Positions 31,912 through 61,900 of a stretch of DNA of 64,000 bases are shown here, piece after piece; within the stretch, counting starts at the first letter, position 1, and each line of letters begins with the position of its first letter. The DNA is from Sinonovacula constricta (Eukaryota > Mollusca > Bivalvia > Cardiida > Solecurtidae). Under the pieces are notes generated by a model that ran no database searches, was not told the DNA's origin, and saw nothing but the letters and a program-made list of their open reading frames with translations. The position numbers were made by a program, and so were the translations under genes. The stretch lies in contig CM017572.1 in assembly GCA_007844125.1 (NCBI GenBank), positions 43,196,632 through 43,260,631 of the forward strand. Direction: 5' to 3'.

Positions 31912-34900
31912 CTACAAAAGAAATTAGTTTGATGATAAAATCAAATAGATTTACTAATATTTTATATAAAATATAACAATAATGATGACATTATAAATAG
32001 TTCATAAGGATCATTATTGCCACCATCATCACCATAGCGGCCTTTACCACCATCATCACTATAGCCACCTTTACCACTATCATCACTATAGCAACCTTTA
32101 CCACCATCATCACCATAGCCACCTTTACTACCATAGCCACCTTTACCACTATCATCACCATAGCCACCTTTACCACCATCATCAACATAGCCACCTTTAC
32201 CACCATCATCAACATAGCAACCTGTAACACCATTATCACCATGGCCACATTTACCACCATCATCACCATAGCCAGCTTTACCACCATTCATCACCATAGC
32301 CACAATTACCTCACCATAGCCAGCTTTACCACCATCATCACCATAGCCACATTTACCACCATCATCACCATAGCCAGCTTTACCACCATCATCACCATAG
32401 CCACATTTACCACCATCATCACCATAGCCACATTTACCACCATTTTCACCATAACTACCAGCATCACTGCTTTCATCTGGCCTAGCATTACTGTCACCAA
32501 CAGTATCACCCCTGCCACACCCTCAACCATAACAACCAGCACCACCACTACCACCCCTTTCCACATCTATAATTGACCTACCTCCTTGAATCACCATCAT
32601 CATGCTTATGTTTACGTTTCCCCTGGAGAGTTTTCTTGTTCAAGCCTGCCACCCCTGCCACATCAGGATGGAGCAGTCCGCAGGCCAAATGCCTTGGCTA
32701 CGTGCCCAAGGTGAAGGTGTTTTACATGAAAGATTGACTTCAGGTCATGGGGGTAGGTAGCATAGCCTCGAATGTAGGATTGGTAAGCTAGAAATATAAA
32801 AATTACAAAGATTCATTATCAAACATATTCTGTAAGAAAATACTAGGTGTTAAAATGCAAACACAGAATGAATTTATCAATTTAGAATTGGAAAGAATGC
32901 CTTTGGCACATCAACGACTTGCATGATTAAATGTTGTTTTAAAACTATACTGACCAAGGATAGAAAACATATAAAATATACTAACAACCTGTTACAAAGT
33001 GATATAAAATTCCTGAACAAAATGAACTGGGCAGCAGAAATAAAAAAAAAATTAGATACTCAAGAATTAAGCCATGTATGGTACACCCAAGGAGTAGCTA
33101 ATCAAAACATGTTTATACCACTATTTATATAGACACAGGTATAAAGACAGATTTTAGACAATGACTAGATCATTTATAGGTAAAAACTTTCAACGCATAT
33201 GAATTATTTACCACTAAAGGCTTTAATATTTAGAAAATAATTCAGTAATTATAAAACAAACATGCTGGTTATTTTTTCCTTGTAAAGATGGATGAAAGTT
33301 CCAAGGTTGGCCTGGGAGCATGAGTTGAGGCCTGAGAGCATGAGTTTGCTTCAAGGTCATGCTGTGACCTTGACCTTCAAGGTAGAGACCCAAATGTTGC
33401 GCCTGCATATTGTACACACTGCTACCTATTAACTAACCGAGTTTCATGCGCCTAGCTTTAATTGTTTTTAAGTTATCAAAGGATCCAGATTTTTAGCGGA
33501 CAGACAGACAGACAGACAGACGAACTGACGGACTGTCGGACGGAGGGTAAACCTATAGTCCCCTCCTATGTAAACACCGGAAGGGGACTAATTATCGATA
33601 ACAGCATCTTTTAAAATAGAAGAGAACATAATGTACTGTACTGTAAAAGCAGAAAAAGGAAAATAGGTCAAATTAATTGGTCTCAAAAATTAACTTCAAA
33701 GGAGAAATATGTAATGAAAGAAAAAATATATCTAATGAAAGGAAAAAAGAAAATATTAGAAGAATGAAAGTGCTAGAAGCCCCTGTGTCATTTCCTGCTT
33801 CTGGAAAGTAATTAGAACTTGTATGTATGAGTAACCCCTCAAGGTTATAGATAGCAAACATAATTTCTGAGTGATGAACCAACATTTCTTAAACTATACA
33901 CGTTAGATTAAATTCCACTTTGAATGGAAGATGACAAAGAAGAGGTTAACAGTTGCAAAGTTAGAATGAATGACCAACATAACCATGTGGGAGTTCATCG
34001 TTATCATCCCATGCTAGTTATGTCACATAATAGTCTAGATACTGTGCATATATATATATATATACTTAAACGCTCTGGTGGGGCTTTATTTACATATTTA
34101 TACTTTATTGAGCATTCCGTTTGGTAACAGTATATGCATCTTGTTTAAGCAGGCTGGAAATATTATTGTTAATATTTGTTGACTTTTATGCTATAGAATT
34201 TGAACTGGGTGACTTTGTCTTTAATTTTACACCAGACGTGAAAAAAACATTTTGTCACACTGGAGATGGGAATAGTCTTAAATTGATAGGCTTTCTGTGT
34301 GAGGCAGTTTTCTCTTTATTCATTTCCTATAAGCAGTTAAGCAAAGCTGGAAATACTCTACCCACAAGCATGCACTATTACTGATACGCATTTAACAGAA
34401 CAACTAATTACATAAGAAAATCTAATTTGAAAAGAGATCAGAATTATTACACAATGGCATCTGTCAGCATGGATTTTGCAAAATCTTCTTCTGACTTCAA
34501 ACATTACCATCTGGTGTAGAACATCATGTGTTATTATACATCACATGAATTTGTTTTATGAAAGTGCCATATACATGCCAATCCACTAATGTCCCATGTG
34601 ACATTATCATGTTGTAGCTAAAAACAGAGTGCTTGTGATTCATGTAATCAAGGGAACTAACTGCATAATGAATACAGTTCCACAATTATAAGACAAGTAA
34701 AAATTTATTAAATGTACCAGCTAACACCTTGGTTGTTATTACTTGTCTCAGTGTGAACGGTACTTTCTATCACCCTCTGTGGAATGAGATATTAATATAT
34801 TATGCACACAGTTTTGTTGTGTACCTAGAGAAAGATCTACAGTGAAACTCTGTATATTATTATTATAAAAAGTGTGCACTATATATGGTCTTTTATGATA

Positions 34901-37900
34901 ACTGCTTTTAAATTAAGCTCTTATGCAAATAACTTTAAACATGAAAGAGCCTATTACAAATGCACAGGCCGAAGGATAATGAACTGTTTTACCTTTATGT
35001 GCTAGTTCTGCCATTTTCTTATCATTTTTCACATAGTTTTCACAGCAGTTCTGCAGATAGGTAGCTGTTTCTTCAGTAGTACGAGGAAGTTGTCTCTGTT
35101 GGATAAAATACAGATATCAGTAGATCAATAGAATATATGGGAAAAATATGTTTTGTTTTGTTTTTGAAATACATTGCAGTGACCAATTATGATCATTTTA
35201 GCGATGTCCAGCTATTTTGGTGGAGGAATACACCCAAAAACAAATGTCTGAGTAGAACCACCTAGCGTACCGCAGGTCAGCTAGAAGGACCTTCCCAAAT
35301 TACGTCCTTCTCCATGAAAGGAAATACTTAGGGTCAAAAGAATACAAGGGAAACTATAGAGGTAAACATATATGGACAATTGGGAGTCAATAAAAATCAA
35401 TCCATTTATGGATCATTGAAAAACTTACACAGGATGAAGTATGAAGAAAATTATGGATCAATAAATCATAGAGTGGGAAAGGGTTAATAAAAATTACAAG
35501 AGGACCATGATGGCCTTATATTGCTCACCTGAGTGCCATGGACATTTAGCCCTTGTGGCTATGCCTTTTGACAGATGAAAATTCTTTGAACAATCTTCAT
35601 ACAAGGCTGCCAAAGGAATACACTAAACTAAATATCAAAGCTCTAGTTCTTGTGATTTCTGACAAGACAATTTTCTAATTTTTCCTCTATAGCCATATAT
35701 CATAAATGGCCACGATCCTGACAGCCATGTTCCTTTGACAGATCTGAATTTTTTAACAATCTTGATACAGAGCCACCCAAGAACATGTATACCAAATATC
35801 AAGGCTCTAGCTCTTGCAGTTTCTTACAAGGGATTTTCTATGTTTTCCTAGCCATATATGGAAAATGGACACACCCCTGGTGTCCATGTTTTAAATGGAT
35901 CAAAATTATTTGGGCTTTTTCTTTCCCGCTGCTTACTTAAGCTTCTGAGAAAGCTTGGCTCATCGGTTTCAGAGGAGATGTTGTTTAAAAAAGTTGACGG
36001 ACTCAGGTGAGCTAAAACTACAATGTGTTGATAGAGAATACATATGGATCAATAAAATAAATAGGTGAAGAGGAGTCAATAATAATATAGCAAATTTTGA
36101 GGTAAATGAAAGATACATTGTTTTGATTTATGCTATATAGAGAAATCAAAGAGCAATAAATAAAGGAATATAGGAGTCAATAAAAATGTACACAAAATAA
36201 TGTTGATGAAAGAGAAAATATGTAATAATCTATAATAAATATATAACAGGAAAATATGTTAATGTAAAAACAAGAGACTCCAAACTGGTGCCAAGAATTT
36301 TCCAACCTATGCCATGTTATGGCTGCTGGTTGTAAGACAGCTATTTTGGTTAATGAAATATGAGAAATAAAATATTAAAACATTATCTCAATGCCAAAAT
36401 GCCACTACTGATCAAGGAACTGAAGATGGAATGTCTGTGTCTAAGAAATATATAGAAAATGCCTACATTGTGTAGATCTATGAAATATAGCAAAAAACGG
36501 AAGGTTGGATATAAAAAAAAACAAGGTATTTTGGAAGGAAAACTGCCTCTACTAGCTTATATACATTTATGACTTTTATTGTTTTTTCTTCTGACTGATG
36601 CCATGAGTAATAAAAAATTCTGCCATGAGTCAAATGTAAAATAGACCCCCCATCTACTCCCCTACCCCCAGCTGTGGAAATATTAATGTAAAATAGACCC
36701 CCCACATCTAACACCCCCAACCCACCACCACCACCACCACCACCATTCCCTGAAGGTTACTTCCAACTTTCTATACCCTATCATTTTCACAGAATGGAGA
36801 TACTGCATAATAAATTGGTAATAAAAGACTGATATCATATGTTCATATGTACAGATTGGCATTGCATTTGTTCATCTATAAGTACTTCCCAAAGCAGTAT
36901 CAGAAAGGAAGGCAGTTCACGGATTACACTATATATTTATACATATCATGCATCGATGACAAAAACCGTTTAAAGTTTTCAGTTTTGTTTATAACAGTGG
37001 AATATTTTGACCCAACCAAATTATATTTACAGCACAGACTGGTGTAAAGTATAATGCTGAGATAATAAATTGTCAGTGACCAAAATTTAAGACATAAAGT
37101 TAATATCCAAGCCTTTTATTTCGAAAGTCTTTGATAAGAAGTGTAACCAATGGTTGGTTACTTTGGTGAAGTTTAACATTTTGTTTAATTAGATGTCAAA
37201 TATTACTCCAATGTTAATCCCACATTTTATTAAATAACTGTTTGAAAACGTGTAAGTGTAATAAATAAAAAAAGTAAGTCATTAGTAAGCATGAGTCATA
37301 GTCAGAACAAATTCTTAATTGCTTTTCCTTACTTTAACTATGGAATTTCCTTAAATATGGAACAGTTCTAAGTCTTTGATTCAATAGTTTTATGAAATGA
37401 AATTTTAGTAATTTTTTTAAAGGAAATTTCTTAGTTTAAATCAGAAAAAATAACAAAGTTTCTTTATGAAGACAACCTGAGTTTCACACAAGTGTTCCTT
37501 GGGCTTCTTGTTTTACCTGGCTTCTAGCAGAAAACTTTATTTCTTGTACAAAATCAACTAAGGTGTATAATGTTAGAAAAAGATGAGCTAGTGTTACAGT
37601 TCACTTGCAGTGGACTTCTGCACCATAGAAGATATTCATGTTTTACAATTGGAGTGAATCCAGGCAGTAGTGCTGTGCATGTAGTTATGTCCTTGACAAG
37701 AAAACATGACACCATCAATACTTATGACCCCAGGTCACCACAGGTAAAATGATCTCTGTGAGTCTGCCCTGCAATGCAGATAAAAATAATTCTTTTTCCC
37801 TAGGCTAAGTTCTCTACTCCACCTGTGTTTACCTGTGTGTCATCTGCCCCTGGTAAGATGGGAACCAGTTTGATTGTATCCTGTAGGATGGACCCCAGCT

Positions 37901-40900
37901 TCATTTCTTCTATACTGGAAACATAATAATAGTATATTATCTTGAAACTGGATAATCATTCTTTTTATTTTCTTTATTTGGTCTTTTTTGTTACATTGCT
38001 CTGACAAAATTTTGGACATATTGGTGACATCCAGCTATTATTGGTGGAGAAGACCCCCAGAAAAGTGTCTGGGTAGAACCACTGGTGCAGCACAGGTTAC
38101 CTGGAAGACCTCCCAAATCAAACTTCTCACCCATACTAGGACTCCAACACATGCAGTGCAGGGCTGAGAAGACATTACTCTTTCCACTCGGCTATGGGTG
38201 CCTTTATTTCTTTAATTAGGCTTTACAACACTGTATAAGGTGAAATGACATTAGAATTAAAATTAATATACATGTATAAAGAAAAAAAAAAGTAATATTT
38301 AATATTTTAAAACCATGAAAATGATGATTAAGTAGTTCTAAATTTACAGTAAACATAAGGGCTACCATGGTTTTCTCTAAAGGTAGAGTTGATCGAGGAT
38401 TGTTCTGTTACGACAGACACAACTTTACAATCTTTATATACATACAGTTTATTTAAAACAACCTTTAATTTATGAAGTTATTTAGAGAAAGTTATCAACT
38501 CCAAACATAACCTATAATGTACTTTTTTACCTAAATGCCCTAAATTTTCACAATTATGTTCTCTTTATTTAAAAAGGTACATTTGGCCTACTAAGCAAAA
38601 GTTTGTTTCATTAATGAAAATTCAACTCAAAAGAAATTTACAAAAAACATTTCAAGGTACATATACTTTGCTAATAAGATGAGATTCAGTTAATTCCATG
38701 TCTTTTGCATTTTGTCACTTTATTTATGCATGTATTTTAATGCAATAAACTGTTAAATTGAATTGAAATTTGTCATGTCAAATATAGCCATCTAGAAATA
38801 GTATAAAACGTTAGAGGACACAGTCTTTACTACTGATCAGCTAAGCAGGAATTGATCATGACTAGGAAAATACTGTTCTCTGCGCAAGGATTCAGCCGTG
38901 GCCATGCAGAAAGAGTAACATCTTATAACTCCTTAGACCTTCAGTGCATAGGTTGGATTCCTGATATGAGTGATAACTTTCATGTGGGGAGGTCTTGCAG
39001 CTGACCGCCGGTGTGCCAGTGGTACACTTATCAGGGGTCTTCGTCCACCAATAAGTAACTGGATGTTGCCAATGATCAAAATTGTATCTGAGCAAAAGAC
39101 TGTTCACTGCAAACAGATTCAACATTGTTATGCTAACCTGGACATTTTAAAAAGCACATTGCTCACCTGATTGTCATTGACATTTAGCCCTTGTGGCTAA
39201 GCTTTTTGACAGATTAAAATTCTTTAAACAATCTTGATACAAGGCCAGCAATGGAATACATAAACCAAATATCAAAGCTCCAGCTCTTGTGGTTTCTGAC
39301 AAAATTTTCCTATATAGCCATATACGAAAAATGGCCATGCCCCTGACTACCATGTTTTTTGATACCGGTAGATCAAAATTATTTGAACAACTTTTCATCC
39401 CCCCCTGCCTTCTTAAGCTTTTGAGAAAGTTTGGCTGAATTTAGCCTAGTAGTTTCAGAGGCAATGTTATTTGAAAATGTTGACAGACACATGATGCAGG
39501 ACGCTTGACACGTGATGCCAGACAGTGGGCGATCACAATAGCTAAAATAGCTAAAACGAGAGCTTTATATTTCCGGTAACCACAAATCAATAAAAATAAA
39601 AGAACTGTTTTTGACAACAAACAAAAAGTGTTTTCTTGACCTGTTATTTTAGAGAGAGTATTTGACCTTGATAGTGGACATGTCTGTGGCTAGAAGTGTA
39701 TGTAAGCCAGGAAATTATTATTCTGCAAGTGACAAGGTTAAAGTAACTTAAAGATACCATAGAGGAAGGTCTCAAATAAATATACCAGTTGTTGCTTGTT
39801 ATGCCAGTACCAGAACTGTGTTTACTGGCAGACACATGATCAAAACAACCAAGCCTCAACATGATTATGATAGATAATACCATCCTCTTAGTCAGCATAT
39901 AATAAAATAGCCTTCATCATGCTACAAATATTTTGTTTATTAGGTTTATCATCCCATCAACAATATTTCAGTTACTTGGAGATGGTGTCCATATGAAGCA
40001 GATAAAGTGCTGCCTTCACTGTGTATAGTATGCCATTAACACCTTGCCTGAAACCATACCAAGTCACATTTTCCTGACACTGGGCTGACCAGTCGTGGAA
40101 CTACCATTACAAAGCATTAACAAAGGAGCTTTAACATCCCTATTTTTCTTTCAACTTCAATCCAAGGGTCTCCAGTAGTGGTACACATGTAAAGATTTAC
40201 TGTGGTATAAATAACAAAGCTGTATGGCCTATATTTTATTCTGTGTGTAGAAAAGTTCATTTCTGTTATTGTACTGCATGAAATTCAATCTTATAGTTTA
40301 TATAGCTAATGTGATATATTTCTACAATTGTTATATTATAGTATTTACAACATTGCACAACCGGGAAATTGGGAGTTTACTAGACTGCACAGACCTAACC
40401 TTTCTCCATTGCTAAATTTCAATTAGAGTTAACCCATGTGATGGTACAACTTGTTAATAAACTTTACTTATTCCAAGTCATCTTTTTACATCTACATGGA
40501 AGCAAAGATTCTAGAGACAATTAAAGGGTTCTACATTACAAGTGTATACATGTACTTGTAGTCCAAGAATTAATAATTTAATTAATACTGTCAAAAATGA
40601 TATCCATTTGTTTTAATACTGGTAATAATTTGAATCGTCTTAACAACCATTTCTAAACATGTCAAAAATCGACAAAGTGCCTTTTTCCCCAAGATAGATA
40701 TGTGTACACACATGGTCTTTTTCCCCAAGATAGATATGTGTACACACAGGGTCTTTTTCCCCAAGATAGATATGTGTACACACAGAGTCTTTTTCCCCAA
40801 GATAGATATGTGTACACACAGGGTCTTTTTCCCCAAGATAGATATGTGTACACACAGGGTCTTTTTCCCCAAGATAGATATGTGTACACACAGGGTCTTT

Positions 40901-43900
40901 TTCCCCAAGATAGATATGTGTACACACAGGGTCCTTTTCCTCTAGATAGATATGTGTACACACAGGGTCTTTTTCCCCAAGATAGATATGTATATGACAA
41001 GGGATTTTCCATAATATAAGGCATGACAGGGGTATGCAACTGTGTGAAAAATGCTAACCAGTGAATGAAAGACCTTATTAGACCTAAACTTTCAGCAGTA
41101 AATTTCAACAGTGTTAATCAAATGTATCGTTTTACTGACCTGGGTGTGTTTTCATTTTATGACTATTTTTGTCATGGAAACAACAATAGCAGTAACAACA
41201 TGACATTACATGCCTTGCTGAAGGCCACTGAAGCCAGTCCCATGTAGCCTTGTGTGGCAGAATGTTGCTAATATGATCATCTTCATTTGCTGCCTGCTTA
41301 GCTGGAATTGGCCACACTTAAGCAAATTGTCTAAATCCAGCCAGCTCTCACTGACAGCACACTTTCTAAGGATTTACACTATTTGCTAGGGAAACTCCAG
41401 AAATGAATTTAGATAACATTTAATATAGTTGTTAGTAAATAGCTAAAAATTTAGTTGGGTTCTGGATCTATACTATGTATTTATGTATACCAGATTAATT
41501 TGTTGTAAGCCAGTCGCTGGTACATTTCTTATCTAGATCTACACTATTTGCCAAAGCCTGATTTATTTGTTCTAAGCAGGATCTGTTTGATCTGGAACCA
41601 CATTATTTGCCTGACTGATCAGATTCTGGTAAGCAGCAAGTAAAAACCAGCAATAACAGGCTGCATGTTCTATCAAAGTCATGCACCTGTTTATGACATG
41701 CTTCCCACTCACCCCTTATCCAGCTTTAACTGCCAAGTTAGACAGCCTAAAGTAATCTGGCTTGGACATCAGTCAACATGGCATGTGCTTGTCAACTTCT
41801 GCCAACCCCAGATGGCTGGGCCTGTAGGTTATGTTTACAATTGAACTACATACCACGGATTGCCAGAATACTTTATTTTAGACATCGATTACTGTTAGCT
41901 GGTAGGGCTAGCTATGAATGGTAGCTATAGCCCATTTATTTTAAATCATCTAACTTATTACAATTATCAGTTAATTTGTTGGGTTGATAGTCACACCAGT
42001 AATACTGAGATAAGTAACTACACTATATCCACTAGAAGCAGATAAAGTGCTGCATTCACTGTAAACAGCAGGCCATAAACACCTGGCATGATAACACACA
42101 ATTTCTAATTTTTCAAAATATAAGAAATGTATTTTTAGTCTATCTTGATATCGACCTTACTTGATTTTGTGCTGGTTACATAATCCAACCTTACCTGACT
42201 GTGCTGGTTACATAATCAACTTTACTTGATTTTGTGCTGGTTACATAATCAACCTTATTGATTTTGTGCTGGTTAGATAATCAACCTTATTGATTTTGTG
42301 CTGGTTACATAACAGACCTTACTTGATTTTGTGCTGGTTACATAGCAGACCTTACCTGATTTTGTGCTGGTTACATAATTAACCTTACCTGACTGTGCTG
42401 GTTACATAATCAACCTTACTTGATTTTGTGTTGGTTACATAACAGACCTTACCTGATTTTGTGCTGGTTACGTAACAGACCTTACCTGACTGTGCTGGTT
42501 ACATAATCAACCTTACCTGATTTTGTGCTGGTTAAGGTATTGTATGAAGTCGAGCTCTGAGGGCATCAGAAACATGATGGTGTTGCCTCTGGTCCCTGCA
42601 CGGGCTGTGCGGCCAACTCTGGAAATAAAATGATACCATAAAGTATATATTAAGAATAGGACTAAGTCTTAACCAAGAGAAAATTGTTTACGTTGAGACA
42701 TTATCTAAATGACCTGCAATTAGTAAACAGATTAAAACACATATTTGTCTGGGGTCTTCCTACAACCATTTTACATGTAGAATGAGGTCACCATTATGAC
42801 CATTATGTTAGTGATTGAAAGTCACATATAGTGATTGTTTTGTTACAGTGTTTGTTTTGGTTTTGTTTTTTAGATACATCACAGTGACCAATTATGATCA
42901 TCACAGCTGTTTTGGTGGAGGAAGACCTCAGACAAATGTCTGGGTAGAACCATCGGCACACCGCAGCTCAGCTGGAAGACTTCCCACACTAAGTCCATTG
43001 CCCCGAATGGGACTCGTATCTATGCAGACAAAGGCTAAGCAGTTAGAGGAGTAACAAAGTAGCTACTCTACCACTATGCCAAGGGCGCCCCTTGCACAGT
43101 GTTTCTTTATCTCTCTCATAACAGGAAGACCACTAGCAAGCTGCTATATATCTATATATATGACAGCAAAGGTCATATCTGAATTGTCCTGACATTATGA
43201 TAAGATATTATCTAAAGCAGCATTATCCAGAATGTGGTTTTGATGACTAGTAAGATGAAAGCTGGTCATGGTGATTTAATATGTTTGCACACTTCTTAAT
43301 AAACAAAACTTGATCAATGGTTGGCGCAACTTAGCTTAAACCTATTTATTTATAGTCAATTGGGAAATATATTCTTTTATAATCTCAATTTATACTAATC
43401 CCTCTAGACTGCCACAGATACTGAGTACCTAGAAAAGTGTGCAGTAAATGGTCCTGCTCATAGATAAACACCATATGGCCAGTATTGGGGTTTTATCCCA
43501 GGACCTTCTGATCCTTAAGGTCTTAAGTCACTAGACCACTGAAGTCCGTTGGCGCATCTTAACTGAATAAGCTGTCAATGACAATATAAAGCTGCCTGCC
43601 ATGATGGCAGAGATGGCCCAAATTGTGGAACATGCAAGACCTCCATTAATTGTCCAACATTGATCTGTCATATACATAAAAATAAAAAAGAAGAAACTTG
43701 CCTGTGCACATAGCTGGGGGTACCTGCTGCACAACTGTACTGGACAACCCATTGAACAGAAGGCAGATGGAGCCCTCGTGCTGCAACATCTGTACACAGT
43801 AACACCCCAGACTTCACGCTGCAAAACTCATGGAAAGCCATAGTGCGGTCCTAAAGTCAGAAATGTATGCATACTTTGAGAAATGGACAAAAAAGATTTG

Positions 43901-46900: not shown

Positions 46901-49900
46901 GGCCAATTATATAAATAAGGCATATGAACGAAGTAGAAATATATAAACAGAATTAGAAATAGAACAACATTTATACCAGATAAAAGGCAGAGAATGGGTG
47001 TTCTATTATCACTGATTTTTATAGTTTGCTAATTTCAAACTTAAATAAATGAGATACCTATTTCAGCATATACTAATGTAAAATGTCTCTGAAAAAAGAA
47101 AAATTCAGATATAAAAACTGCATTATAAAGTGAATAGGACTCTTATTTATTCATTCTATTAACTTGATTTTTTTTAAAATTAACCTTTCTTTTAGCATGC
47201 AGTGTTTAAGATTTTGCAAGCAAAATAAAAAAAACATGAAATAAACATAGTACATGTAAAAGGAGTTCCCCCTTTGAACTTAACAAATATTAATTAAATA
47301 TTTATAAATGTTAATACCTTTATCTACTGGAATAGTATCCTATTTCTGGACTTATAGAAAGAAGGCCTTACAATTCTGTCTTCACAAATCTGATCTGTAA
47401 GCATCTTGGCCAGTATTCATCAACTATTTTTAAGTAAGAATTGCTAAATTCATGAATCTCAATCCACAATTTCTTTATCATGCATTTAGCTACATGCCTA
47501 TACTTTTGCATGACATTATAACTTTGCTGCTTTCAGCTTCAAGTCACAAACTTCATAAATAAGCTTAGTTTTGTTGGGATGAAAATGTGACTTCGGGCTT
47601 AAGTCATGATTTAGGTTTAAGAATGGTTGGTGAATATGGGCCCTAGTTTGTAGAAACCTTATTGACATACAGGTCTACAAAATGTAACCTTGTGAATATC
47701 AATTTAACCTTGACGAGCACACTGAGCGACCCACCTGTTTTTCAGCACTAAGTGTTCATGAACAAACATTTAGCATAAATGATAAATTATATTATCATAA
47801 ACTTAACATTTACCTGGCACTTGGAAAATATTAAAGTCAGCAATGAGACCAATCTCAACTTGCAAGGTGTGATCACAAAATATTGCTTCAAACTGTCTGG
47901 AATAGCATAAGCAGTTGATTCTGATTGGCTGTCTGCTTGTGTTCTGTCTTCTGGTTGGTTATTTAGCAACTTCTTATCCATGGACTTGCTCCCAGAATCC
48001 TTCAGTGCTTTTGACTGGTTCTGACCAATGGCAACTCTCTGGGGATTCTTTAATGACATTCCTGCCAGTCTTTCAACTCCTGTAATGTTTTTAAAAGGCA
48101 AAATCTTTACGTAAAAAAATTAAAGTAAACAGCTAAAAAGAAAAACAATAGTGACCATGGCCTACCAGTCATGGTTGAATGATGAATCCTTAATAGTTAG
48201 GCCTCCTGGTGCAAATTTAAGACCTGTCACAAGCTGAATGTATTTGAACAACATTATTTACTATGCTTTGCTAAATGTACATGTAGATATCACCTGAGTA
48301 CTGGTTCTATTCAAAACGTAGACTATATGGACCACAGGGGACATTACGAGAAGATACTTATAAATCAATGGCAATGTTACATACTTATGGCAGCACATTA
48401 TCTGCTTTAAGTGCACAACTGTAAGATTTTGATTAAGAGGTGAAATCCAACAAAGAAAACTCTTAGTTAAGATATATTTCCATAAGAAAACAATACAAAA
48501 TACATGAAACACATGAATAAATTATATGGTAAATTAAACTCTTACCGTCAGACAATGTGGCTGACAGCAGAACAGTCTGTCGTTGCTTGCGACTGTTTGT
48601 CCACGGCTTTCACAATATTCAGCACTTTCTCCTCAAACCCAAGGTCCAACAACCTGAAAAGATAACCATGATTCTTGTACTTATACAGAAATACACTGTC
48701 AAAAGGGCCATGTTCCACTACTTTTTATATCTGCTCTCAAATCTTTCCTAATGCTACCTGTATAACTACTACTATAGCTACTACTACTTCTACTTCTTCT
48801 ACTACTACTAATACTATTACCTAATACTCCTACCTTAGCTACTACTTCTACTTCTTCTACTGCTACTATTACATCTACTACATCTACATCAGTTACTACT
48901 ACTACATCAACTACTGCTACTTTTATTACATTCTACTCCTACCTCAGCTACTACTACTGCAATTACTGCTACTGCTGCTACTCCTCCTCCTCCTCTTACA
49001 ACAACTACTTCTTACGCTACTATATTTTCTCCTGCTTCTGCAACTACTGGTAATACAACTAATGCTGCTACTACTTCTGCTACTGTACTGTACTTCTACT
49101 TCTGTTTCTAGTACATTTTACTACACATTGACAAACCATATATGTTTTTCTTTAAGTGGAAGTCTTATAGGGTATCAAATGTGTTTTTGAAAGCATCAAT
49201 GACTACCAATCTATCAAAGTTGGTGTGATGTTAAACCCAACAAACATTTTTACTGAAACATTTGTATCTATTTGTAAGAGACAAAATCTTTAGTCTGCCT
49301 TCAGATTTCGAAATAATTTAAGGTGTTCTAATGTATGATAGAAGTTTTATTTCTACTACTAAAGGTATATATCTAATTGGGGGAACAACTTTTGCTTGAA
49401 AATGGACAAAGCATTATATACAACAACAAATAGATACAGTATATACATGATCAGAAAAGAGAGAGCAATGACTCATACAATATGAGCAATTCATTTGTAA
49501 CATTGTATTTATTGACCAATCAAATTATTTCCTGATCAACTGGCAAATAAGGCAATATGTATGGTATAGTTTATGACAGACTCTTGAATAAAATGTGGAG
49601 GTGTTGTAAAAATGCACAAAACTCTCATCCAGCAGCAAGCTTTTCCCATATAAGTAAGACAAACAGTTTAAACAGATATACATGTATCCGGCAGCCCTGG
49701 TGGTCAAGTGAACTAAGGTGCTGGACTGCTAACACACAGAGTACTATTTCTATCCATCATATTAGCAAGCTATATTGTTAATAATCTGCTAATAAAAGAA
49801 CCATGAAAAATGTAACATAACATACTGCCTGAGCCTTTAAAGATAATATAGTAGATCCTGATTCATGCTTTAAGAGGTTATTAAAGCTATATGTGATTTC

Positions 49901-55900: not shown

Positions 55901-58900
55901 TATGCATATAATAAACATTTTTATTCTTTCCTTTTCTAGACTCACCTGTCTGCCTCATCAAGCACCAGCCATTTGATGCTAGAGAGACTGAGACTCTCAG
56001 TGTTCTCTATATGGTCTAACATTCGCCCTGGAGTGGCCACTAGTATGTTCACACCTTTCCTTAGCCTGCAATGGATAAAACACTTCTCAACAACACATTA
56101 TATCCAGGGAAGGGTGGGTATGAGTACAAAGTATGATACTGATTTTTAAATAAGTCCAATTCCTTCTACTTACAAATTATATTTTTAGTCAAATCCCATA
56201 TTTCAAAGAAGAAATGTATGTGTTTCGGCCCTTATCGTAGGTATTTTTATATCCCTTTATAAGAAATGTCGTAGGTATTTTTATATCCCTTTATAAGAAA
56301 TATGACTCATTTTAGTTTATATTTGATTTTTTTTATCAAGGAATTTAAGTTGTTCTATTCTTATTAAGCAACACAATTTTATGTGCTGTCTGTGACATCT
56401 TGACAGTTGAAAATGTATAAAAACTAAAAAGTATATTTTCATACAGTAAATTTTTATCAAATACCTATCCACAAGGCAGATAACACATGCAACTTGAGTA
56501 ATGTCCCTTAGTGTAGAAAAATATAGATAGGTTATATCAAGCTATACTCCAGCCCACACAGAAGAAAATCGCTTTTTAAAAAAGTGGTCTACAATGTTTT
56601 TAAATAATCAAAGATAAATGTTAGCTACAAGGAAACAGAGCAAACATACTTCATTGTATTTTAAACAACATCAAAGCCACACATAAATGGTCAAGGTATT
56701 GATGATTAAGTTTTACTGCTGGAATAAACCCAACAACAAATAAGCCCATAGATCAGTTAATAAATGAACACAAAAGATTGAAATAAGGGTCCATTATTAA
56801 GCAAAAGATGAAGGGGAGAGCACCCAACTGGAATTTAATGCATTTGGTTTCAAATATGTACTTATAAACCAAATATGAGTTGAATCTTTTGAATCCCCAA
56901 AAGGTTATTGATTGGAATCTACAAACTGACAGCAAAAGTTACTCCTGTAGTATTTTAGTATACAGCAACAAAAATCAAATTTGAACTGTATTTTGATACC
57001 ACAAGACTTTAAAATTTATATAAATTAATTCTGCTGAAACTGTTTGTATACCTTATGCTTGTTTGATTTGTTTAAAGTGCATTTTTTTAATGACAATGTT
57101 CTATGTACAATAAATAAAAAAAAATAAAAAAAAATGCTGGAGACTAATAAATTAAAGCTGAAATAAATGACTTGGCAAAGCTACAACAAACAAGCCACAA
57201 AACAAACCTTGCTTTCTCTGCTTTCCTTTTTTCCCCACCCATGATACATCCTGGAACCAACCATGTGAAAGGCTGAAAAAAGGGTCAACATAGCTGTATA
57301 TCTATGGTAATAAACATGAAAAAGACATGGACCAGTAAGGTATTTATGTCATGTACAAAATCACATGTTTTTATAAATGTTAGCATATTATCTGGTATCA
57401 TGTTTCATACTCTCTAACCCAAACATAATCATATATACAAATCTCTAACCCAAACATAATAATATAAACAAATCTCTAATCCAGGTTTAATAATATAAAC
57501 AAATCTCTAACCCAAACATAATAAAATAAACAAATATCTAACCCAAACATAATAATATAAACAAATCTCTAATCCAGGTTTAATAATATAAACAAATCTC
57601 TAACCCAAACATAATAATATAAACAAATATCTAACCCAGGTTTAATAATATAAACAAATCTCTAACCCAAACATAATAATATAAACAAATCTCTATCCCA
57701 AACATAATAATATAAACAAATCTCTAACCCAAACATAATAATATAAACAAATCTCTAATCCAGGTTTAATAATATAAACAAATCTCTAACCCAAACATAA
57801 TAATATAAACAAATTTCTATCCCAAACATAATAATATAAACAAATCTCTAACCCAAACATAATAATATAAACAAATCTCTAACCCAAACATAATAATATA
57901 AACAAATCTCTAACCCAAGTTTAATAATATAAACAAATCTCTATCCCAAACATAATAATATAAACAAATCTCTATCCCAAACATAATATTATAAACAAAT
58001 CTCTAACCCAAACATAATAATATAAACAAATCTCTAACCCAAGTTTAATAATATAAACAAATCTCTAACCCAAACATAATAATATAAACAAATCTCTAAT
58101 CCAGGTTTAATAATACAAACAAATCTCTAACCCAAACAAAATAATATAAACAAATCTCTAACCCAAACATAATAATATAAACAAATATCTAATCCAGGTT
58201 TAATAATATAAACAAATCTCTAACCCAAACATAATAATAAAAACAAATCTCTAATCCAGGTTTAATAATACAAACAAATCTCTAACCCAAACAAAATAAT
58301 ATAAACAAATCTCTAACCCAAACATAATAATATAAACAAATCTCTAATCCAGGTTTAATAATATAAACAAATCTCTAACCCAAACATAATAATATAAACA
58401 AATCTCTAACCCAAACATAATAATATAAACAAATCTCTAACCCAAACATAATAATATAAACAAATCTCTAACCCAAACATAATAATACAAACAAATCTCT
58501 ATCCCAAACAAAATAATATAAACAAATCTCTAACCCAAACATAATAATATAAACAAATCTCTAATCCAGGTTTAATAATATAAACAAATCTCTAACCCAA
58601 ACATAATAATAAAAACAAATCTCTAACCCAAGTTTAATAATATAAACAAATCTATAACCCAAACATAATAATAAAAACAAATCTCTAACCCAAGTTTAAT
58701 AATATAAACAAATCTCTAACCCAGGTTTAGGAATATAAACAAATCTTTAACCCAGGTTTAATAATACAAACAAATCTCTAACCCAGGTTTAATAATATAA
58801 ACAAATCTCTAACCCAAACATAATAATATAAACAAATCTCTAACCCAGGTTTAATAATCTAAACAAATCTCTAACCCAGGTTTAGGAATATAAACAAATC

Positions 58901-61900
58901 TTTAACCCAGGTTTAATAATACAAACAAATCTCTAACCCAGGTTTAATAATATAAACAAATCTCTAACCCAAACATAATAATATAAACAAATCTCTAACC
59001 CAGGTTTAATAATCTAAACAAATCTTTTACACAGGTTTAATAATACAAATAAATCTCTAACCCAAGTTAAATAATATAAACAAATCTATAACCCAGGTTT
59101 AATAATACAAACAAATCTCTAACCCAGGTTTAATAATATAAACAAATCTTTAACCCAAGTTTAAAAATATAAACTAATTTCTAACCAAGTTTCATAATAA
59201 CAAGGTCCTTAGTGGAATAAGGATTTTATATCAGCATTCAAACAGAAAATCAAGTTCCTTAAAAGAAAAATCATAAGTTCATCAAAGCAAAAGCTGTTTT
59301 ATGTTAGAAACAAATCAATTTTAATTACATGATCTGCTAACTCCATGACAAGAACTAAAATTTAAATAATCTCAAAACATAATATATATGTTCTTTTAAA
59401 TTTTCCTATTTGCGTCTGAATATAAATAAAAAATTAACATATGATAGGTTTTTTAATAGCAAAACTGTTTTAAAATTATCAAATGAACTCACCTTTAACA
59501 GTTTCAAGAAAACTTCGTAACTTTGTATTGCAAGCTGAAAAATTTCAAAGTACATGTTTTATTCATTAAAGAATCATACAGCTTTTGGGATGGCTATTCA
59601 CCATAGATGAATGCCTGGGTATAACCACTGGCTCACTTGAGATCAGATGGAAAACCTCTGCACATTAAACTTCTTCCCCTGATAATTGATAAGCTTATTG
59701 ACAAATGTGTGAGGATAATATAATTAAAAAAGGTTACATGTTTATGTCATGTAATCATGGTACTCATTACATACTATAACAGGTTACATGTTTATGTCAT
59801 GTAATCATGGTACTCATTACATACTATAACAGGTTACATGTTTATGTCATGTAATCATGGTACTCATTACATACTATAACAGGTTACATGTTTATGTCAT
59901 GTAATCATGGTACTCATTACATACTATAACAGGTTACATGTTTATGTCATGGAATCATGGTACTCATTACATACTATCATGGTTAAAGCTGCTTTATTTC
60001 TTTCAGCCTATATTTATTTATTACACTGTGTTCACTACTTCTTTGGACAAAGTTACTGGGAGGCCAAACTGTCTCCTACACCAGCACAGATGTAATATTG
60101 TAAGTGTACTGTACCTCTCTTGTAGGGACCAGAATGATGGCCAACGTCCCATCTCCACGCTTCAGTTTTGGCTCATATCTACACAGATCCTCTATAATAG
60201 GTATAGCATAAGCCATCGTCTTACCTAAAAAAACATGCAGCTCTCGGTACAAAAAAATACGGAGAAAGTGTTAGTTTTTCTATAAGAGTGAAATTTACCA
60301 AGCAACCTTCCTGGCTGATTATTTTTTAGAAAAATGAAACAATGGACAGGTATTAAAAAACATGATGGAATATTCCCAAAAATATGACAATTTAAAAATA
60401 GTTTTTAAATTAATCTGAATTATATCTGCAGAAAATTGTCAAGCTTTCCCAACAACTTATCTTATTCCTCTTTATTTAGGCAAAAGGCCCCTTCCTTAAG
60501 TTAGCATGTATCATTAAAACGATAAACAGCACATACCTTTAACTTTATTTAGACTGATTTACTTATATTTCAATAAGGTTAATACAACCTGATAAAATAA
60601 TGTAAAATTTGAAAGAAATATTGCATGATGATTATTACTACAGACCTTTGAAGTCTGTGGTTTTGCATTTTATAAACCATAAGGGCTTAAAAAAGAAAAA
60701 CTCTCTACTCCAATGTCAAGTTTTATACTTTAGGCAAAAAATATGATAAAATCGTAATAAATTAGATAAAGCTAGTAATAAAGTGCATCTTACAAGAGAG
60801 CTGCACATTTGAAGTATTTTTTTTTTTCACTTTTTAACAAATAACAGAACATAGATGCATAGAAAATAAAATCATTTATTATTTAAACTTGATAAGTTTT
60901 CCATTTAAATTCTCAAAACATTCTCTGTGTTTTTATATTGTCTGTTGAAAAGCTATACAAAGTTTTTCGTTTAATGTTAAGACATATTTCTGACAATAAA
61001 AAGCATTTTATCTGAAAGCAACTTACCAGAACCAGTCTGAGATTTGACAAGAACATCATGACCCCCGACCAACTTGGGGATGGTTTCCTGCTGTACAGAG
61101 GTCATTGTGCTGTAGCCCAGCTTCTCTAGGTTTGATACCTACACCATAATCAAACAAATAAAATCGTTGTAAGAATAGGTGGAACCTCGGCTATTTCCCA
61201 GTTACATGGAAAATATTAAAAGAAATCTGGTAATAACACAGAAAAAGATCTATCCATTTAGTTAATGGGATACATTTCTTTAAAATAAATCACTGATACA
61301 AAAACATATTATTCAATTTGGGACATCTTTTTTAAATCTTTGTAAGAATAGGTGGAACCTGGGCTATTTCCCAGTTACATGGGAAATATTAATAATATCC
61401 ATTTAGTTAATAGGAAACATTTCTTCAAATATATCACTGATACAAAAACATATTATTCAATTTGTGACATCGTTTTTAAGGATTCTTAGGCTAAAAAACG
61501 TTGAACAAAGAACAAGAATACTAAGAATTAAAAAAGTGAAAATATTTGTGTTGCATATTCTAGAAATAGCATTATTTCAAAGTGATTAATTTAAATGCAA
61601 GATATTAACATAGCTGGATATATTTAGCTATTTAAGGAACTTTTCCTAGCATTTTTCCGATAAGGAATACAAAATGAAGATCCTTAATACTGCATCTAGT
61701 GTATAGGAAATGGACCTGTAAACAAGCCTCAACTTTTTAGCATAAGAATTATTCCACATCTTTTCTATGTTCATGTACACTGATGATAATTTTGTTTGTT
61801 TTAGTTGTTCATTAAATAATAAATAAATGTTTGACTTGTCTAAAAGTTAGGTGAACCTACCATGTACGGATGTAAAGATGTGTCTTTAAAACTGTCTGAT

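What the first reader, a model, noticed from the sequence alone, without database searches (positions are those of the whole stretch)
42154..42540. Tandem array seeded from a gene's own exon-intron junction, laying down a ladder of extra 5' splice sites
About 12 units of 33 bp follow exon 13 of the DDX31-like helicase. Each unit copies the last 17 exon bases (AACCAGCACAAAATCAG) plus the donor. Five intronic units keep a perfect CAG|GTAAGG, some have CAA|GTAAG and two have lost the GT. Use of any distal donor would retain sequence that meets TAA directly after the real exon end, removing the DUF4217 region or triggering decay. The array could serve as a copy-number-dependent splicing brake, or be neutral slippage that selection is disabling donor by donor.
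Basis: partly seen in the sequence, partly recalled or inferred. Interest (0 to 1): 0.8.

Follow-up and report, generated by a model that had tools for sequence, protein, structure and literature searches.

The report
Tandem repeat copied from splice junction
In a bivalve helicase gene, the last bases of one exon together with its splice signal have been copied about a dozen times in a row into the following intron; this is a known kind of repeat, described before in amphioxus genes, and similar cases turn up at other genes of the same genome.

Summary
On the minus strand, 12 units of 31-33 bp (42150-42534) start in the DDX31 exon 42618-42517. Unit 0 spans the real junction; 11 lie in the intron. 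Five intronic units keep CAG|GTAAGG, four have CAA|GTAA, two have lost the GT. Any downstream donor would add a TAA right after the exon (Arg-stop), before the C-terminal exons.

Donor columns vary no more than the others (3 of 9 against 11 of 25), so nothing shows selection disabling donors. No RNA was available to test a splicing brake. Tandem repeats fill 14% of this window, so an array over some donor is expected by chance.

It is not a one-off. Of 17 other donor-word arrays of this genome whose 5' end I could judge, four begin at an exon end. Junction-spanning minisatellites are already known: amphioxus 'mirages', where RT-PCR suggested normal splicing, and human IFI6, whose extra donors are used. 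Best reading: a near-neutral mirage, mostly spliced from the authentic donor, with minor leak into transcripts with an immediate stop.

The parts
42517..42618 (-). DDX31 exon (VGRTARAG...LNQHKI), 102 nt, ends in codon phase 2; number 13 if one unlocated first exon is assumed
   Evidence: tblastn with six bivalve DDX31 proteins; AG/GT borders
42501..42533 (-). unit 0: last 17 exon bases plus authentic donor plus 16 intron bases
42150..42500 (-). units 1-11, intronic copies
   Evidence: TRF; parsed units
42511..42519 (-). authentic donor CAG|GTAAGG
   Evidence: U1 pairing -11.5 kcal/mol
42480..42488 (-). intact intronic donor, unit 1
42447..42455 (-). intact intronic donor, unit 2
42383..42391 (-). 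intact intronic donor, unit 4
42350..42358 (-). intact intronic donor, unit 5
42189..42197 (-). intact intronic donor, unit 10
37833..37914 (-). next DDX31 exon (IEEMKLGSILQD...), acceptor TTTCCAG|T; intron of 4.6 kb between
32599..35098 (-). span holding the last two exons, which encode the C-terminal extension (PF13959, formerly DUF4217)
   Evidence: tblastn; Pfam on joined exons, E 1.3e-19

Best explanation
It works like, and I file it as, a 'mirage': a minisatellite born by tandem duplication of a 33-bp stretch that straddles the 3' end of a DDX31 exon and its donor, then expanded into the intron by slippage or unequal exchange. I think it is close to neutral. U1 can pair equally well with six donors, but the authentic one is used in most transcripts; the others cost at most a minor share of transcripts that end at an immediate stop and decay. 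Shown: anatomy, junction, immediate stop, equal predicted donor strength, recurrence at other genes. Inferred: birth mechanism, donor choice, decay, neutrality.
For: Unit 0 is the real junction and is coding. Units vary alike in donor and other exon-derived columns (0.123 and 0.114 mean pairwise differences per column; 0.246 in the intronic tail). The window is 14% tandem repeat, and random placement of the gene's 11 arrays puts one over an exon 3' end in 81% of trials. Four of 17 judged donor-word arrays elsewhere in the genome also begin at an exon end, with differing effects on frame, which argues against one shared purpose. Amphioxus mirages reportedly do not disturb regular splicing (passages of PMC3087553).
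Against: No RNA was seen. A review-type passage says the intron-proximal of two comparable donors tends to be favoured (PMC6002489), and in IFI6 the extra donors are used, so leak could be large. Intact donors lean towards the exon (P = 0.089). CAGGTAAG ladders exceed the reversed word at periods 31-35 (127 against 56 matches), though not over the wider range (985 against 944). No matched control for the 4 of 17 was run.
Confidence: 0.7

Rival explanations
1. Splicing brake: the donor ladder diverts a regulated share of DDX31 transcripts to an immediate stop and decay, so that the number of intact units sets gene dose.
For: Five intact intronic donors as strong by U1 pairing as the authentic one; every distal donor gives Arg-stop; used extra donors are known in IFI6; an intronic VNTR is needed for one alternative splice of hTERT (PMC8150890, passages).
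Against: No excess conservation of the donor columns; other junction arrays in the genome have different frame effects; amphioxus mirages reportedly splice normally.
Confidence: 0.07
2. Mildly harmful load: the intronic donors are used often and without regulation, lowering DDX31 output; the array persists by drift.
For: Reported preference for the intron-proximal of comparable donors (PMC6002489); six equal donors here.
Against: Normal splicing reported for amphioxus mirages; no more change in donor columns than elsewhere, though power is low.
Confidence: 0.15
3. The units came from a dispersed repeat that happens to resemble the exon end, rather than from the junction itself.
For: An array on C19 (L002) has a 30-bp unit sharing TGTTATGTAACCAGCA (82 bits).
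Against: The DNA search reported 7 matches, one of them the window; the 5 besides L002 score 56-57 bits with unlike units. Against shuffled units the L002 likeness has P about 3e-6 for one comparison; at the window's array density some 3e5 arrays are expected in the genome (extrapolation), so about one such match is expected. The exon end is coding and aligns with relatives. The search for the exact unit elsewhere did not complete.
Confidence: 0.04
4. Assembly artefact or decaying gene: unit number or the gene itself is not represented faithfully.
For: Two apparent frame changes in the gene's exons.
Against: It is the only place in the genome whose matches span the DDX31 protein (60 of 90 candidates scored); exons are well kept over 30 kb; units are diverged rather than identical.
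Confidence: 0.04

Closest known systems
'Mirages' of amphioxus: Adh3, globins BflGb6 and BflGb9 (PMC3087553, passages read)
   Same: [quoted passage not shown] many units keep AG/GT; short units (10-72 bp in Adh3).
   Different: Another phylum and gene; the BflGb6 case duplicates the acceptor side with 150-160 bp units. Length and somatic instability, reported there, and splicing, tested there by RT-PCR, are untested here.
Human IFI6 (6-16) minisatellite (seen as a passage and reference in PMC4526556; the 1995 paper is not held)
   Same: A minisatellite that provides several splice donors at an exon end.
   Different: There downstream repeat units are used and give three mRNA species; here every distal donor leads to an immediate stop. 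The 12-bp unit of IFI6 is recalled, not seen.
Human internal tandem repeats at exon-intron boundaries in segmental duplications (PMC2812944, passages)
   Same: Minisatellite expansion at exon-intron boundaries, about 30-bp units on average.
   Different: Reported there as changing intron structure and transcripts of recent paralogues; here a single-copy gene, transcripts unknown.
Intron gain by tandem duplication of an AGGT segment (PMC4974935, passages)
   Same: Tandem duplication of a segment holding AG|GT, including multiple 24-bp duplicates in fission yeasts.
   Different: There an exonic segment yields a new intron; here the junction of an existing intron is duplicated and no new exon is evident.

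Membership tests
Mirage (junction-spanning minisatellite) | Tandem repeat whose unit spans an exon-intron boundary | tested here: met
   Unit 0 holds 17 exon bases and the donor; array continues in the intron
Mirage (junction-spanning minisatellite) | Many but not all units keep the splice signal | tested here: met
   9 of 11 intronic units keep a GT at the donor, 5 of 11 the full CAG|GTAAGG
Mirage (junction-spanning minisatellite) | Length instability between alleles | not testable with these tools
   One assembly only
Mirage (junction-spanning minisatellite) | Regular splicing retained | not testable with these tools
   No RNA data
IFI6-type multi-donor minisatellite | Repeat units act as used donors in mRNA | not testable with these tools
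   No RNA data; donors of equal predicted strength exist
Intron gain by AGGT tandem duplication | A new intron that relatives lack | not tested
   Intron positions of relatives were not examined; only their proteins were aligned

The most novel reading that the evidence does not exclude
A copy-number-tunable poison-donor ladder: the number of intact units sets how often DDX31 pre-mRNA is spliced into a decay-prone form, and in minisatellite-rich bivalves such junction ladders are a common, heritable and fast-mutating layer of gene dosage control.
Probability: 0.06. Interest if true: 0.8.

Novelty: new member of a known kind. Interest (0 to 1): 0.4.

Why it matters
The array is a natural experiment in donor choice: six donors of equal predicted strength at 0, 31, 64, 128, 161 and 322 bases from the exon end, with an unambiguous outcome for every wrong choice. 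Several junction arrays in one genome, differing in frame effect, would let ordinary RNA-seq ask whether exon-proximal or intron-proximal donors win and whether such arrays are tolerated or purged. It also extends a structure that I found described for amphioxus and human genes to a mollusc.

Tried and rejected
Considered and set aside. (1) Pseudogene: no second DDX31 locus was found, but two apparent frame changes remain unexplained. (2) Recursive splice sites: the stretch before CAG|GTAAGG is A-rich without a pyrimidine tract, so use as acceptors is unlikely; judged by eye only. (3) Dispersed repeat family: see rivals. (4) Pfam on single short exon peptides gave nothing for two of four and only a sub-threshold unrelated match for the DUF4062-type exon alone; PDB sequence searches gave no usable match.

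Not done. The pattern search for the unit elsewhere in the genome, the reversed-word arrays and their flanks, and a reversed-array control did not complete or not sent, so the 4 of 17 has no matched control. Three papers are not held. Literature searches on minisatellites or tandem repeats with splice sites or introns; only named bivalves. It listed three papers; of these I looked at passages of one (PMC6905558), an abalone gene with an intronic minisatellite that is not said to span a junction. Only open-licence papers are searched.

Full report
What is there. The minus strand of the window carries a DDX31-type helicase gene. tblastn with six bivalve DDX31 proteins (Mactra, Mya, Ruditapes, Mercenaria, Dreissena, Mytilus) places its exons from about 62960 down to about 32600; borders were read. 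The exon with VGRTARAG runs 42618-42517, 102 nt, phase 2 at its end. The next exon starts at 37914 after TTTCCAG, so the intron is 4.6 kb; five of the six proteins align there, the Mytilus one does not. At the start of that intron lies the array, 42150-42534.

Units. There are 12: unit 0 with the real exon end and donor, units 1-11 intronic. Five of 11 intronic units have CAG|GTAAGG, three CAA|GTAAGG, one CAA|GTAAAG, two have lost the GT.

Consequence. Reading on from the exon gives ...LNQHKIR*: the donor's G completes Arg and TAA follows, so every distal donor gives the same end, before the C-terminal extension (PF13959, E 1.3e-19 on joined exons). Decay of such transcripts is inferred from general knowledge.

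Selection. Over units 0-10, 3 of 9 donor columns vary against 11 of 25 others (Fisher p = 0.70). Among units 1-10 the mean pairwise difference per column is 0.123 (donor), 0.114 (other exon-derived) and 0.246 (intronic tail). Intact donors lean towards the exon (rank-sum 22, P = 0.089 over all 462 arrangements of 5 in 11). Units are not independent and power is low; neither disabling nor upkeep of donors is shown.

Position. TRF rows, merged by hand, give 23 arrays over 9,185 of 64,000 bases (14%), 11 of them in the gene span. Placing those 11 at random, at least one spans the 3' end of an exon in 81% of 20,000 trials; a single 385-bp array does so in 17%. The exon table there was typed by hand and includes the last exon's end, which is no donor; the largest array, 1.8 kb, adds much to the 81%.

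The genome. The window lies in G000 (1.22 Gb, 177 contigs, unnamed). Its DDX31 is 52-57% identical to the six best listed relatives, from Mactra, Mya, Ruditapes, Mercenaria, Dreissena and one unnamed source, so I take it for a bivalve of that wider group (inference). No second DDX31 locus was found (60 of 90 candidates scored).

Recurrence. Three CAGGTAAG words in a row, gaps 15-45: 985 matches against 944 for the reversed word; gaps 23-27: 127 against 56. Matches overlap within arrays, so these are not array counts, and only the first hundred or so places of each are listed. From I looked at 9 arrays of contig C1 (two more on C1 and three on C2 in that list were not looked at). The 5' end could be judged in 7 and one begins at an exon; in 2 the array fills the locus. 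Three of the 7 share one unit. From I took 16 flanks; five could not be judged, four being filled by the array and one having only some 70 bases before it. The other 11 include two copies of one locus, so 10 distinct; three begin at an exon, and one more (L085) is possible. So 4 of 17 judged arrays begin at an exon end, DDX31 not counted. Judging was by eye (open frame between AG and the first donor) with family matches where found.

The four. (a) C1:40237162 (L048, L068): exon ...YPKLKSDLRERYGLEFQ, with neighbouring exons giving a DUF4062-type peptide (PF13271, E 3.6e-4, 21.1 bits, below the curated 24.7); 52-bp unit, about 28 exon bases. (b) L077 and its copy L078 on C8: exon of a UAA-family transporter (PF08449, E 8.3e-31 on joined exons); 33-bp unit, only the last six or so exon bases resembling it, so copying from the exon is weakest here. 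(c) L083, C11: PHD-finger exon (PF20826, E 2.8e-10); units of 32-39 bp, about 19 exon bases. (d) L080, C8: exon-like open frame with acceptor and donor, 34-bp unit, about 24 exon bases with two differences, no family match. Frame effects differ (where the DDX31 block failed and is replaced): in (d) the stop is immediate as in DDX31; in (a) the first distal donor shifts the frame and further ones add stops; in (b) the three distal donors read keep the frame open; in (c) four of five listed shift the frame and the fifth runs through a stop.

Known kinds. [quoted passage not shown] Both features that I could test are met. A passage of PMC4526556 reports that human IFI6 uses downstream repeat units as donors. 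Passages of PMC2812944 report human tandem repeats at exon-intron boundaries. PMC6002489 (passages) says that why the intron-proximal of two comparable donors is favoured is not known; that is the main reason to expect leak here.

Verdict. A clean example of a known kind, recurrent in its genome, probably near-neutral, and a ready-made test of donor choice. The splicing brake is possible and untested.

Noticed in passing
48544-48655 and about 32660-32670, minus strand: Two DDX31 exons each show an apparent change of reading frame relative to relatives; assembly error, polymorphism or decay not told apart.
   Followed up: partly
about 43699, minus strand: The preceding DDX31 exon ends CAG|GCAAGT, a GC donor.
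   Followed up: no
40681-40991: A second, purer tandem array (36-bp unit, 8.6 copies, 96% matches) lies in the same DDX31 intron.
   Followed up: no
1-2440 and 57411-59199: Long minisatellites (51-bp unit, 47.8 copies; 31-bp-based unit with higher-order periods).
   Followed up: no
L077, L078 (G000 C8 near 8.097 Mb and 10.515 Mb): Two copies of a transporter gene junction array; units read TCTTTCCAG CAG GTAAGC, an acceptor-like tract directly before a donor, and stay open in frame.
   Followed up: partly
L002 (G000 C19): A 30-bp array sharing 16 bases with the DDX31 unit; consistent with chance given the number of arrays.
   Followed up: yes
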